This document shows positions 26,747 through 40,325 of a stretch of 64,000 bases of DNA, piece by piece (positions within the stretch are counted from its first letter, which is position 1; each line of letters starts with the position of its first letter). Location: the NCBI RefSeq assembly GCF_007004725.1, contig NZ_ML660162.1:186001-250000 (forward strand). Direction: 5' to 3'. The stretch comes from Aliikangiella coralliicola. Lineage in GTDB: Bacteria; Pseudomonadota; Gammaproteobacteria; Enterobacterales; Kangiellaceae. A program made the position numbers and the translations under genes. Below the pieces are notes generated by a model. The model did not search any database and was not told where the DNA came from. It was given only the letters and a program-made list of their open reading frames with translations.

Positions 26747-26810
26747 TCATAACGCTTATTTAAATTGTGAGGCGTATTTTGCACCAAATCCGCTTCTAAT
26801 CTTGTTATAG
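26747..26810 (-). repeat. attC site
   Basis: TCATAAC at 26747-26753 and GTTATAG at 26804-26810; closely related in its inner arms to 36336, 39825 and 40732 although the cassettes differ. Confidence 0.85.
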
Positions 26811-28075: not shown

Positions 28076-28471
28076 TTAAATCTTTTCTACCAGTTGAATA
28101 TTATTACCACATGTATCGTAAAACACTGCTACTTTTACAGTTCCCATTTCCATTGGCTCCATACTGAATTCGACTCCAAGTTTAGAAAGTCGATCATACT
28201 CGATTTGAACGTCTTCAACATCAAATTGAGTATACGGTATTCCGGCCTCTAATAGTGCCTCTTGATAAACTTTAGATGGTTCAAAATGCAAAGGAGCTGG
28301 TTCCAACAAGATTTCAGGACCGTCTTGTGCTTCCTTTGAAACAAGAGTCAACCATCGATTACCTCCTTCCAAAGGCAAATCAAGTTTTTTAATAAATCCC
28401 AACTTTTCGGTATAGAACTTTAAAGCTTTCTCCTGATCTCTAACAGGTATGCTGATTATTGATATTTTCAT
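28076..28471 (-). CDS. VOC/glyoxalase-fold protein (cassette)
   Basis: 131 residues: I-S-I-P-V-R-D-Q-E-K-A-L-K-F-Y-T-E-K-L-G-F at the N-terminus and V-A-V-F-Y-D-T-C-G-N-N-I-Q-L-V-E-K at the C-terminus, the two modules of a VOC fold. The terminal Glu is where metal-binding members place a ligand. It lies 29-36 bases downstream of an AraC-type regulator in the same cassette, implying co-transcription and possibly inducible detoxification. Confidence 0.85.
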   Translation of the reverse strand: MKISIISIPVRDQEKALKFYTEKLGFIKKLDLPLEGGNRWLTLVSKEAQDGPEILLEPAPLHFEPSKVYQEALLEAGIPYTQFDVEDVQIEYDRLSKLGVEFSMEPMEMGTVKVAVFYDTCGNNIQLVEKI

Positions 28472-28500
28472 TCATTTCGCCTTTAAGATTAAAAAATTCA

Positions 28501-28908
28501 TCATATATGATTAGAATTTAGTTTACTTCTCGAAAGTTGCTCTTTTTGATACTGCTTAGGTGATATTCCTATTTTCTCTTTGAATAATACGCTAAACGAT
28601 CCCAAACTTTTAAAGCCAACAGCAAAGCATGTTTGAGTCACGGAAGTTCCAGCTCTTAAAAACTCCTTCGATTTCTCAATTCTCTTATCAATTAAATATT
28701 GCTTGGGCGTAAGACCAAAATATCTCTTGAATAATCGTAGTAAATAGTACTTAGAAATAAACCGATGAAATGAAAGCATGTCCAAATTTAAATCAGAATC
28801 ATAATTTGCATCGATTAATTTCTTAATTCCAATTACTAAGTCAAGTTGCTGCTGATTAGAATAAACCTGTTTTCTAATTCTACGCAGCTCCGTTTCATAA
28901 AATGTCAT
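28501..28908 (-). CDS. AraC-type DNA-binding protein, HTH only (cassette)
   Basis: About 135 residues from ATG 28908; a TTG at 28926 is an alternative. The AraC/XylS double helix-turn-helix is plain: F-I-S-K-Y-Y-L-L-R-L-F-K-R-Y-F-G-L-T-P-K-Q-Y, then A-V-G-F-K-S-L-G-S-F-S-V-L-F-K-E-K-I-G-I-S-P. There is no separate ligand domain, only about 35 helical residues ahead of the HTH. First gene of a two-gene cassette with the VOC protein at 28076, which it probably controls. Confidence 0.85.
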   Translation of the reverse strand: MTFYETELRRIRKQVYSNQQQLDLVIGIKKLIDANYDSDLNLDMLSFHRFISKYYLLRLFKRYFGLTPKQYLIDKRIEKSKEFLRAGTSVTQTCFAVGFKSLGSFSVLFKEKIGISPKQYQKEQLSRSKLNSNHI

Positions 28909-28926
28909 AGTTTCACTTAGTTTCAA

Positions 28927-29233
28927 TAGGTTATTCGCTCTAACTAATTTTTTATCATTATCAATTCTTCTTCGCTAAGCTTGAATTCGAACTATTTTTC
29001 TATCGCCTTGATTTTCATTCTAACCCTATTTACTCAAGTCGATTAAACCTTATTATATCTCGCATAAAAGAGATGTGCATTGCGAGAGTCTCTCATCTTT
29101 GCGGGGAGACTGTCCTTTAGTTTTAGACTCAATTAAATAAAATTATTCCCCTGAAAAACGGAAAAGGCAAAACGCTGCAACGCTTTGCCTTTTGAGATGC
29201 CATCGAATTTTTACTGGCAAGAGGAAAAATACG
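28927..29233. other. Gap ahead of the reverse-oriented peptide block
   Basis: No gene. Contains a junction-motif-like GGAGACTGTCCTTTAGTTTT at 29104-29123 and the first CTGCAA hairpin (29162-29193). This is the presumed promoter region of the plus-strand peptides, although I see no convincing -35/-10 pair. Confidence 0.5.
29162..29193 (+). repeat. Hairpin with CTGCAA loop, terminator-like
   Basis: AAAAGGCAAA/TTTGCCTTTT perfect 10-bp stem around ACG-CTGCAA-CGC. A short T run follows the stem, so it could end transcription in either direction or act as an RNA element. Confidence 0.65.
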
Positions 29234-29368
29234 ATGTATACACCAAGACTAGTCAAACATGGGCTTATAAGCAAATACGAGCAGTCTAGTTTTAGCAACA
29301 AACGGAGCCCAGTTCAGCACATTTTTATGAACAAGACTACGCTTAGGTTAGGTGCAAGAGGAAAATAA
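29234..29368 (+). CDS. 44-residue basic peptide (plus strand)
   Basis: ATG 29234 follows AAGAGGA at eight bases; TAA 29366. The peptide is basic (starts M-Y-T-P-R-L-V-K-H-G, ends L-R-L-G-A-R-G-K) and has no membrane segment. It runs against the cassette direction and is followed by a hairpin and then the hydrophobic peptide at 29464. The strong ribosome site is the main argument that it is real. Function unknown. Confidence 0.45.
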   Translation: MYTPRLVKHGLISKYEQSSFSNKRSPVQHIFMNKTTLRLGARGK

Positions 29369-29371
29369 ACC

Positions 29372-29440
29372 GAGCTGTCGAAGTTGCTTTGAACCGAAAA
29401 AACGCTGCAACGTTCTTTTGGGTATGCTTCTAGACAGCTC
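29372..29440 (+). repeat. Nested hairpin between the two peptides, CTGCAA loop
   Basis: Outer arms GAGCTGTC/GACAGCTC; inner CCGAAAAAAACG-type arm pairs with CGTTCTTTTGG around the loop CTGCAA. It ends 24 bases before the next ATG, so it would sit in the untranslated leader of the 29464 peptide. Confidence 0.7.
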
Positions 29441-29463
29441 CTAACACGATGAGGATATAACTT

Positions 29464-29586
29464 ATGGAATCCGCTATCAACGCTTTGAATACCTTGGTAA
29501 CGACCTGTGCACAACACCCGGTCGGTGCAGCCCTCGCAATAGGGCTTCTGGCCGCCAGTGCTTATCTTTGTTATTTATTGCTTTAA
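29464..29586 (+). CDS. 40-residue hydrophobic peptide (plus strand)
   Basis: ATG 29464 with GAGGA eight bases upstream; TAA 29584. About 18 N-terminal polar residues (M-E-S-A-I-N-A-L-N...) are followed by one transmembrane-type stretch (G-A-A-L-A-I-G-L-L-A-A-S-A-Y-L) ending L-C-Y-L-L-L. Such short single-span peptides include type I toxins and small membrane regulators; the structured leader fits translational control. No homologue recognised. Confidence 0.5.
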   Translation: MESAINALNTLVTTCAQHPVGAALAIGLLAASAYLCYLLL

Positions 29587-30159
29587 TTGAAGTCGAACAG
29601 GTATCCTTTTTATGGCTGTGAAAGCCTGTATCACTTTCACATTGGTGAAGAGTGACAGGCTAGCCCAGTATTTCTAGGAAACCAAACAGATTTTATATCC
29701 ATTGGGACCCGTTCGCAGAGGTAAATCAGCTGAGGCAGAAGTTTTCTGTCTGACCAAGTGATGAAGAAACTTAGATAGGGGCTAAGCAGGTAATATCAAA
29801 ATGTATCTGAGTGTCTTCATGTATTTAACGCTAGAGTGATTTGGGAACATCTTAAGTGAACACAACATCTTAAGTGGACACTCAGCCAATTAAAATTTTA
29901 ACAAATTGTCTGCTTATCAGTTTTTGATGTTTTTGTTCACTGCCTTGATTTTTTTCAACTAAATAAGCTAACCCGTTTAGTTTTCAAATTGATTATACAA
30001 ACCACTGAGTCCTGCACTATTAACAATCTTTTTGAATGTGAATACGCTAATATAAGTTCAGGGGCTTCAATTTCCCTTTGAGAGTGTGGGTTTTGTTAGT
30101 TAAAAACTCCCCTCCCAATATACTAATGCTTACCTCGTCCAGGAACAGGTTTATTTCTT
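29587..30159. other. Gap with junction motif
   Basis: Besides the hairpin above, it holds TAAGTGGACACTCAGCC at 29874-29890 and the junction motif TTTTAACAAATTGTCTGCTT at 29896-29915. No further gene is seen. Confidence 0.55.
29623..29661 (+). terminator. Strong hairpin after the peptide block
   Basis: AGCCTGT-A-TCACT-TTCAC pairs with GTGAA-G-AGTGA-ACAGGCT around a short loop, about 17 pairs. No U tract follows, so it may end or stabilise the transcript rather than act as a classic terminator. Confidence 0.5.
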
Positions 30160-30618
30160 ATGAGTGAATCTAAAAATGCCAGTGAGTCTGATACCCCCGC
30201 GCTTTATGACAAGGTGCATCAACTGGCGTTAGAGATGATTAAATCTTCGGAAACTAACGATTTGCAAGCGATGTGGCTGGCATATAATAGTTTAAATCAA
30301 CTCTGCAAAGATAATGAATACTCTGGCGTAGACCATCCTTTTCAGTGGGAGATTTTGGCCGACTTTACTAATGATCCTAAAACGGCCATTCGACTCTACC
30401 ACAACGCCCTTAAATTGGCGCTTAAAGCTGACTTTCGCGAGTACGTTGCTTCTATTCTTATCTCCCTGGCTGAAAATTATCTCGAGCTCGGAGAGCGAGT
30501 ACTTGCCTGGAAAGAGGCGCTGGCAGCAGATCAAGTGGCACGCGAAACAAAAAATCTTCGATTGAGGACGGAAATTAGTGAGTTTCTACTAGAGATGAGC
30601 GCCAGCTCGAAGGATTAA
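30160..30618 (+). CDS. Helical-repeat (TPR-like) protein on plus strand (cassette)
   Basis: 152 residues, almost all alpha-helical. Paired helices such as D-P-K-T-A-I-R-L-Y-H-N-A-L-K-L-A-L-K-A and A-S-I-L-I-S-L-A-E-N-Y-L-E-L-G-E have the small/large spacing of tetratricopeptide repeats, about three units. ATG 30160 follows AACAGG at ten bases. Opposite to the array, so it needs its own promoter, as toxin-antitoxin and similar self-sufficient cassettes do. Role unknown. Confidence 0.65.
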   Translation: MSESKNASESDTPALYDKVHQLALEMIKSSETNDLQAMWLAYNSLNQLCKDNEYSGVDHPFQWEILADFTNDPKTAIRLYHNALKLALKADFREYVASILISLAENYLELGERVLAWKEALAADQVARETKNLRLRTEISEFLLEMSASSKD

Positions 30619-35764: not shown

Positions 35765-36072
35765 TTTAATGCTGCCCTTTATTCGCGTATAACAGCTGAT
35801 TGCATTCAATAAATCGCATTTTAACTCAAACAATAGTTTAGATTTTACTGAATTATTTAAGGATATCTGATACTTACTCAACTTAGCTTTTAAGTCAATG
35901 CCGGATTAATGCGACTTTACTGCGTTTAAATCCTGACGCACTTTTTAACATCCCTTTAAATTAACCTGTCCTTTGCTCTGCAGATCTATAGTTTTCGATC
36001 GGTGACACCTTTTGGTAGACTGTCCAATTTTACAGACTGTCTGCTGAAATTTTAATGAGTTCTCTCAAATTA
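35765..36072. other. Gap with attC half-site and junction motifs
   Basis: R' box GTATAAC at 35787-35793, then AT-rich DNA, and a double junction motif (TGGTAGACTGTCC and ACAGACTGTCTGCTG, 36013-36045). I find no gene. Confidence 0.5.
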
Positions 36073-36327: not shown

Positions 36328-36335
36328 TTGATGAT

Positions 36336-36399
36336 TCCTAATGCTTATTTAAATTGTGAGGCAGCTTTTTAGTTGAATCCATTTTCTAACTCTTATTAA
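36336..36399 (-). repeat. attC site
   Basis: TCCTAAT at 36336-36342 through to ATTAAGT at 36393-36399; nearly identical in its inner part to 39825-39888. Confidence 0.8.
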
Positions 36400-36836
36400 G
36401 TAACGGTTTTAGTGATGCTCGGCTCTTCTCGCGTAACAACATGAAACCAATCTTCCCCAGTCCTTACTTCAAAGTGCAATAAATCCCCGGGAGTAATGTC
36501 CATAATCAATGTCTCAGATTTAATATAACTTAGTAATGAAGAGGATTTGTATTGTCCAATTACTCCTTCATCTCGAAACTCATCATCTTGGCCTTTGTTT
36601 GCGCATTCATCAAATACCTGCATAAAAACAACATCGTCAAAGTAAACCCTATAGTGAGGACCTTTAGGTTCAACTCGATACGCCCCTTTGATTATGCTTC
36701 CTTCTCCAAGATCAATATCTTCTTTTTCTTTTGAAGGAATATCGCCAATCAATTCGATCGCTAAAGTATTATCTTGATAGATACAAGAATCGATCAACCA
36801 CCTATCATAAGTTTGAGAGTCTAAGTCTGATTTCAT
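36396..36836 (-). CDS. Duplicated unknown cassette protein, copy A
   Basis: 146 residues, acidic, beta-rich, one Cys pair (D-S-C-I, D-E-C-A); no signal or membrane segment. It differs from the product at 39885 at only eight positions by my alignment (138 of 146 identical), and the attC downstream is also nearly the same. The family is not recognised; the D-W-F-H-V-V-T-R-E-E ending and size resemble immunity-like proteins. Confidence 0.7.
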   Translation of the reverse strand: MKSDLDSQTYDRWLIDSCIYQDNTLAIELIGDIPSKEKEDIDLGEGSIIKGAYRVEPKGPHYRVYFDDVVFMQVFDECANKGQDDEFRDEGVIGQYKSSSLLSYIKSETLIMDITPGDLLHFEVRTGEDWFHVVTREEPSITKTVT

Positions 36837-39808: not shown

Positions 39809-39824
39809 GATCTTTAATTCGTAT

Positions 39825-39888
39825 GCCTAACGCTTGTTAAAATTATGAAGTTGCTTTTTAGCTGAATCCATTTTCTAACTCTTATTAA
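39825..39888 (-). repeat. attC site
   Basis: GCCTAAC at 39825-39831; the far end ATTAAGT at 39882-39888 matches 36393-36399. Follows cassette copy B as 36336 follows copy A. Confidence 0.82.
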
Positions 39889-40325
39889 GTAACGGTTTTA
39901 GTGATACTCGGCTCTTCTCGCGTAACAACATGAAACCAATCTTCCCCAGTCCTTACTTCAAAGTGCAATAATTCCCCGGGAGTAATGTCCATAATCAATG
40001 TCTCAGATTTAATATAACTTAGTAATGAAGAGGATTTGTATTGTCCAATTACTCCTTCGTCTCGAAACTCATCATCTTGGCCTTTGTTTGCGCACTCATC
40101 AAATACTTGTATAAAAACAACATCGTCAAAGTAAACTCTATAGCGAGGACCTTTAGGTTCAACTCGATATACCCCTTTGATTATGTTTCCTTCTCCAAGA
40201 TCAATATCTTCTTTTTCTTTTGAGAGAATACCGCCAACCAATTCGATCGCCAAAGTATTATCTTGATAGATACAAGAATCGATCAACCACCTATCATAAG
40301 TTTGAGAGTCTAAGTCTGATTTCAT
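39885..40325 (-). CDS. Duplicated unknown cassette protein, copy B
   Basis: Same length and start as copy A at 36396, with eight substitutions (for example Ile-Gly-Asp-Ile-Pro to Val-Gly-Gly-Ile-Leu near residue 29, and a conservative Asp-to-Glu late in the protein). Both copies are intact, so neither has been visibly inactivated since the duplication. Function unknown. Confidence 0.7.
   Translation of the reverse strand: MKSDLDSQTYDRWLIDSCIYQDNTLAIELVGGILSKEKEDIDLGEGNIIKGVYRVEPKGPRYRVYFDDVVFIQVFDECANKGQDDEFRDEGVIGQYKSSSLLSYIKSETLIMDITPGELLHFEVRTGEDWFHVVTREEPSITKTVT

What the first reader, a model, noticed from the sequence alone, without database searches (positions are those of the whole stretch)
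29162..29661. Reverse-oriented two-peptide element with nested CTGCAA hairpins
On the plus strand, against the array, are a 44-residue basic peptide and a 40-residue single-span peptide, each with a strong ribosome site, separated by a nested hairpin and followed by a 17-pair hairpin. Two hairpins present the same CTGCAA loop, which contains the self-complementary TGCA and could form a loop-loop contact. The arrangement fits an RNA-controlled small membrane toxin or a peptide signal, but matches no system I know.
Basis: partly seen in the sequence, partly recalled or inferred. Interest (0 to 1): 0.75.

Follow-up and report, generated by a model that had tools for sequence, protein, structure and literature searches.

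The report
Twin-hairpin two-peptide element in integron array
Inside a run of integron gene cassettes, and pointing against them, sit two very short reading frames that each start at the same distance behind a hairpin with the same loop; it looks like a matched pair of RNA switches for two tiny proteins, one probably membrane-bound, but no relative was found in the collections searched, so what it does is still a guess.

Summary
The features described are in the sequence. The two stems differ in sequence yet mostly pair, with four two-sided changes (only 2 sequences, and 42 of 500 shuffles do as well). On the plus strand of 24 kb of array these are the only two ATG frames of at least 40 codons with a 4-nt SD core. 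I take the arrangement as real and duplicated, not chance.

The rest is inference. No convincing relative of either peptide, the DNA or the hairpin was found, so conservation cannot be tested. Codon usage speaks against ORF2. hp1 folds better, and is the strongest terminator-like site of 20 kb, on the opposite strand, which suits a terminator of the array or of an antisense RNA. Best reading: an orphan two-peptide operon whose two start sites share one RNA-level address, with a single-span membrane peptide as likely effector. It works like a type I toxin-antitoxin; membership is unproven. Interest moderate.

The parts
29029..29056 (+). sigma-70-like match (TTTACT-16-TATTAT, 9 of 12), possible promoter of the element; overlaps a minus-strand match (TGCACA-16-TATAAT, 29079-29052) that points at the AraC-type gene
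   Evidence: number of promoter matches in the region is at chance level (5 found, 4.0 expected)
29162..29193 (+). hp1: hairpin with loop CTGCAA, core 29169-29182; the better terminator-like hairpin on the minus strand
29201..29236 (+). predicted hairpin CATCGAATTTTT..AAAAATACGATG that holds the SD in its loop side and the ATG of ORF1 in its stem
29221..29225 (+). GAGGA at -13 of ORF1
29234..29368 (+). ORF1, 44-aa basic peptide
   Evidence: codon usage uninformative to unfavourable
29372..29440 (+). hp2: outer stem GAGCTGTC/GACAGCTC, inner hairpin about 29394-29421 with the same CTGCAA loop (core 29399-29412)
29451..29455 (+). GAGGA at -13 of ORF2
29464..29586 (+). ORF2, 40-aa peptide with one hydrophobic span
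   Evidence: codon usage unlike array genes
29616..29668 (+). hp3: long hairpin after ORF2, no T run after it
29158..29447 (-). hypothetical antisense RNA: promoter match TTGATA-17-TATCCT (29480-29452) upstream, complement of hp2 at its 5' end, hp1 as terminator
   Evidence: fold z -3.3; promoter matches are at chance number, so this is inference

Best explanation
A small two-peptide operon reads against the cassette array. Its two start sites carry copies of one translation-control unit: a hairpin with an invariant CUGCAA loop (core starting 65 nt before the ATG), then GAGGA, then the ATG. A trans-acting factor that reads the loop would set translation of both peptides together; the simplest candidate is an antisense RNA from the opposite strand that ends at hp1 and shows the complementary loops UUGCAG, so that one RNA can meet both start units. 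The single-span ORF2 peptide is the likely effector at the membrane (growth arrest or membrane stress, like a type I toxin); ORF1 is a companion or leader peptide. Shown: the arrangement, the register, the stems that differ but mostly pair. Inferred: transcription, translation, the antisense RNA, the effect of the peptide.
For: Register of core, SD and ATG: positions -72 to +3 agree at 39 of 75 (mean 19.5, sd 3.8); none of 61425 other position pairs of the region reaches that. Of the 3 SD-preceded ATG pairs 30-1500 nt apart on the plus strand at 17-41 kb, this is the only one with an in-register identical run of at least 11 nt upstream. Only two SD+ATG frames of at least 40 codons on that strand. 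Stems form 23 of 26 pairs with four two-sided changes; sliding the partners by 1-3 columns gives 31-67% paired. Fold z -4.5 for hp2, -4.1 for hp3. hp1 is the first of 19 terminator-like sites, on the minus strand.
Against: No relative found at the limits used. Codon usage: with all codons both frames lie in the bottom 1% of 307 gene pieces and 40-50% of 1535 non-coding frames score as high; with synonymous choice alone no gene piece scores below ORF2, ORF1 is within range. Outside core and ATG the units agree at only 22 of 58 positions. The covariation is reached by 42 of 500 shuffles, and the hairpins were noticed because they pair. hp1 folds better on the other strand and is not significant on plus. 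Promoter matches are at chance number. The 4-nt SD rule was set after seeing the SDs.
Confidence: 0.4

Rival explanations
1. The function is on the minus strand: hp1 (and perhaps the inner hairpin of hp2) are intrinsic terminators or parts of a structured RNA transcribed in array direction; the two plus-strand frames are chance.
For: hp1 is 7 kcal/mol more stable on minus and T-rich sequence follows it there; first of 19 sites, 14 pairs against at most 9 for the others. Minus-strand 290 nt fold z -3.3 against -2.8 on plus. Codon usage of the frames.
Against: Does not explain why SD and ATG follow both cores at the same distances nor the two SD+ATG frames (0.3% of shuffles).
Confidence: 0.25
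2. A true type I toxin-antitoxin: ORF2 is a membrane toxin, ORF1 a tisA/mok-like upstream frame, and an antisense RNA 29446-29162 is the antitoxin.
For: Anatomy as above; promoter match 29480-29452 on minus places the 5' end just before hp2, hp1 would end the RNA.
Against: No family match for either peptide, no toxicity evidence, promoter match at chance number.
Confidence: 0.12
3. Translation attenuation: ORF1 is a leader peptide whose translation rearranges hp2 and opens ORF2, as known for the cmlA cassette leader.
For: ORF1 stop lies 4 nt before the outer stem of hp2; attenuation in integron cassettes is described (passages of PMC8876359).
Against: hp2 does not cover the SD of ORF2 in the predicted fold; does not explain hp1 with the same loop before ORF1.
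Confidence: 0.1
4. A decaying, silent relic whose hairpins and frames survive from a once working element.
For: Orphan status; poor codon scores.
Against: Frames, SDs and paired stems are all still intact together.
Confidence: 0.13

Closest known systems
tisAB/istR-1 type I toxin-antitoxin of E. coli
   Same: Two short frames in a row, the second a small hydrophobic peptide, structured leader; for tisA too there is no experimental evidence of translation (passages of PMC11264685).
   Different: No LexA site near (the one strict CTGTN8ACAG of the window is at 36020); the passages seen do not describe a duplicated start-unit hairpin for tisAB; antisense RNA here only proposed. TisB was not compared directly by sequence.
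Gene-less integron cassettes with antisense-strand promoters
   Same: Transcription against the array from inside a cassette is known and can silence upstream cassettes (passages of PMC11014356).
   Different: Those are without genes; here two short frames with start units.
Cassette translation attenuation (cmlA) and integron-associated small RNA
   Same: RNA-level control inside integrons (passages of PMC8876359).
   Different: One leader per gene in cmlA as recalled; here two copies of one hairpin before two short frames, in reverse orientation.
ANTAR dual-hexaloop RNA motif
   Same: Two hairpins with six-base loops in a leader, read by one protein (passages of PMC8934654).
   Different: Loop positions 1 and 4 are A and G there, C and C here; the two loops are close there, 230 nt apart here.

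Membership tests
Type I toxin-antitoxin | small hydrophobic peptide with a membrane span | tested here: met
   hydropathy only; 8 of 158 short frames score as high
Type I toxin-antitoxin | peptide belongs to a known toxin family | tested here: not met
   no match above cut-off in Pfam, NCBIfam, PADLOC, nor a significant one in PHROGs or PDB sequences; weak sub-threshold hits only (best E 0.06)
Type I toxin-antitoxin | antisense RNA against the toxin mRNA | tested here: inconclusive
   terminator-like hp1 on minus is strong; promoter match at chance number; no transcript data
Type I toxin-antitoxin | peptide is toxic and the RNA relieves it | not testable with these tools
   needs expression
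ANTAR dual hexaloop | loops with A at 1 and G at 4 | tested here: not met
   CTGCAA has C at 1 and C at 4; rule from passages
ANTAR dual hexaloop | short constrained linker between the hairpins | tested here: not met
   cores 230 nt apart; constraint from passages
attC recombination site | R''/L'' and L'/R' boxes like the neighbouring sites | tested here: not met
   no site scoring 18 or more between 26809 and 31963; best in 28926-29874 is 16.3
Integron gene cassette | element bounded by attC on either side | tested here: inconclusive
   attC-like sites at 26748 and 31963 but none recognised next to the element

The most novel reading that the evidence does not exclude
A new kind of two-peptide module in which one trans-acting RNA (or RNA-binding protein) controls two start sites through duplicated hairpins with differing stems and one shared loop address, carried in reverse inside an integron array.
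Probability: 0.13. Interest if true: 0.7.

Novelty: new variant of a known kind. Interest (0 to 1): 0.42.

Why it matters
If real, it would show that integron arrays store RNA-controlled small-protein modules that gene callers are likely to miss, and a way to co-regulate two peptides by copying one RNA address before each start codon. Duplicated in-register start units are also a concrete, searchable signature for other short genes of unknown function.

Tried and rejected
Homologues of ORF2: own genome, then 98 other relatives, 393 other genomes of the order and 368 others of the class (samples; the sets overlap) gave none at E limits of 0.01, 0.001 and 0.01. In the own genome two weak extra hits, E 0.043 (one stop inside) and 2.1, were not read further. 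ORF1: own genome, none but itself; 393 others of the order, one hit at E 0.0095 with two stops inside, taken as chance and not read. DNA, 561 bases: two weak extra hits in the own genome, E 0.28 and 0.99; in 40 relatives 12 hits of 18-33 bases in 9 genomes. I listed ORFs for two of these; the one in L007 lies inside a 375-aa frame that I recognise by eye as a flagellar FlhB-type protein, the one in L009 was not settled; the others I take as chance unread. Plasmids, phages, E. coli: no match. Genome and viral contigs: 48, 13, 26 and 51 stretches matched a peptide pattern, none confirmed; twin-core pattern in viral contigs 0. Metagenome contigs were not open.

Core motif elsewhere in the genome: one more exact 13-mer on C10, inside a 312-aa transporter-like frame (name by eye), rejected. 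Within the window, 7 matches with up to 2 mismatches against 4.1 expected. Hairpin model R1 in 41 genomes: besides the two hairpins it was built from, five places at E 0.08 to 9.9, all five overlapped by open frames of 70 codons or more; the search used stricter filters.

attC origin of the hairpins rejected. At its own threshold of 11 that scan does not beat shuffles (68 on minus, 40 on plus, 69-85 in 5 shuffles), so I used scores of 18 or more, a cut set after seeing the list; shuffles were not counted at that cut. LexA control rejected. A first SD scan with 5-mers found neither frame; the 4-mer scan was made after seeing the SDs, which flatters its numbers. The AraC-type protein was sought in 97 other genomes: 1 match at E 1e-20, 34% identity, not followed, so whether that gene and the element share a cassette is open. 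A MAFFT alignment of the two 75-nt units put in gaps; register was therefore measured without gaps and pairs on the 32-nt hairpins.

Full report
What is there. The window lies at C3:186001-250000 of a 7.04-Mb genome in 22 contigs. Between about 20 and 41 kb it is a run of small genes, mostly on the minus strand, separated by short attC-like sites: 16 sites score 18 or more with a simple two-box model, all on the minus strand, 11 of them the training sites and 5 new; the best plus-strand score is 17.8. The model's loose threshold of 11 does not beat shuffles, so only the high scores count. No gene reaches the curated cut-off for integron integrase (five sub-threshold stretches in three frames; the 14 control genomes ring in the same way without passing the cut-off). 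I read this as a cluster of cassettes without a recognised integrase.

No Rfam family reaches its gathering score in the window.

New observation: two start units in register. The identical 14-mer of hp1 and hp2 recurs at an offset of 230, and so do the two ATGs; GAGGA stands at -13 in both. From -72 to +3 the units agree at 39 of 75 positions, against a mean of 19.5 (sd 3.8), and none of 61425 other position pairs in the region reaches that. Leaving out core and ATG, agreement is 22 of 58, so the likeness rests on the core, the SD and the ATG. Among the 3 pairs of SD-preceded ATGs 30-1500 nt apart on the plus strand at 17-41 kb, this is the only one with an in-register identical run of 11 or more upstream. 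No repeat of 14 arose in 1000 shuffles of the element.

Structure. Aligned without gaps, the two 32-nt hairpins form 23 of 26 pairs; the loop is invariant and four pairs are changed on both sides. With two sequences this is weak: 42 of 500 shuffles reach the same count. It is what one expects if the loop is read by something and the stem only has to pair. On strand: hp1 has an A-C mismatch on plus that becomes G-U on minus, where it folds at -20.6 rather than -13.4 kcal/mol; on plus hp1 alone is not significant (z -1.6). On minus it ranks first of 19 terminator-like sites in 20 kb, 14 pairs against at most 9. hp2 and hp3 are significant on both strands. The start codon of ORF1 lies in a predicted hairpin, 29201-29236.

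Coding. Two SD+ATG frames of at least 40 codons on one strand of the 1.2-kb gap occurred in 0.3% of 2000 shuffles, one or more in 7.3%; on the plus strand at 17-41 kb there are no others. Against coding: with all codons both frames fall in the bottom 1% of 307 gene pieces, where 40-50% of non-coding frames score as high; by synonymous choice ORF2 lies below every array-gene piece, ORF1 is within range. Short or foreign frames can look atypical (general knowledge), so I weigh this as moderate evidence against.

Relatives. None convincing for either peptide, for the DNA or for the hairpin. The genome sets were samples (99, 394 and 369 genomes with the own one included), and the contig scans need an exact peptide word, so distant relatives could be missed. 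Profile libraries gave only sub-threshold hits for ORF2 (DUF3318 E 0.06, HPIH E 0.14, phrog_36995 E 0.31) and none for ORF1; no PDB sequence matched ORF2.

Mechanism. The simplest account is a small operon whose two start sites share one RNA address. A minus-strand RNA from the promoter match at 29480-29452 to the terminator-like hp1 would begin with the complement of hp2, cover ORF1 and its SD, and present UUGCAG loops complementary over six bases to both sense loops. One antisense RNA could then meet both start units, which gives a reason for invariant loops on differing stems. The promoter match is at chance number, so the antisense RNA is a proposal. ORF2, with one span, is the likely effector.

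Known systems. Functionally nearest is tisAB/istR-1 (passages seen). Membership in type I toxin-antitoxins is not established. ANTAR dual hexaloops fail on loop letters and spacing (passages seen). Promoters reading against the array inside cassettes are known (passages seen), and RNA-level control inside integrons as well (passages seen). Paper searches for integrons with type I toxin-antitoxin and antisense RNA (5 of 5 listed), with reverse orientation (3 of 3), with small membrane protein (3 of 3), with small RNA and antisense (11 of 11), for sedentary integrons with toxin-antitoxin (15 of 103 listed) and for superintegron with type I toxin (8 of 20 listed) showed no title or start of abstract that describes such an element; I claim no more than that.

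Verdict. Observation confirmed and strengthened by the register; interpretation plausible but untested; orphan status caps what can be said. Interest 0.42.

Noticed in passing
17457, 17810, 19260, 20054, 24589, 25171, 29892, 31229, 33279 (37-nt family, 9 copies); 27962, 29864, 32170 (63-nt family, 3 copies): A repeated intergenic sequence with halves like AGACAGTCTG and GAGTGTCTACTTAAG recurs in the array and does not look like the attC sites; perhaps remnants of a small mobile element.
   Followed up: partly
30160-30618: A further plus-strand gene in the array, 152 aa, weak TPR likeness (Pfam TPR_12 E 0.003, below its cut-off) without a 4-nt SD core.
   Followed up: partly
28076-28926: Minus-strand pair of a glyoxalase-family protein and an AraC-type regulator with no attC seen between them; a promoter match in front of the regulator overlaps the one of the element.
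   Followed up: partly
36334-36836 and 39823-40325: Two near-identical cassettes in one array: 300 nt at 95%, each with a 146-aa frame.
   Followed up: no
29846-29881: Tandem pair of an 18-mer, AACATCTTAAGTGRACAC, 17 of 18 identical.
   Followed up: no
G000:C2:630839-631309 (L019): A recombinase-like frame (333 aa listed) that matches the first half of the integron integrase model below its cut-off.
   Followed up: no
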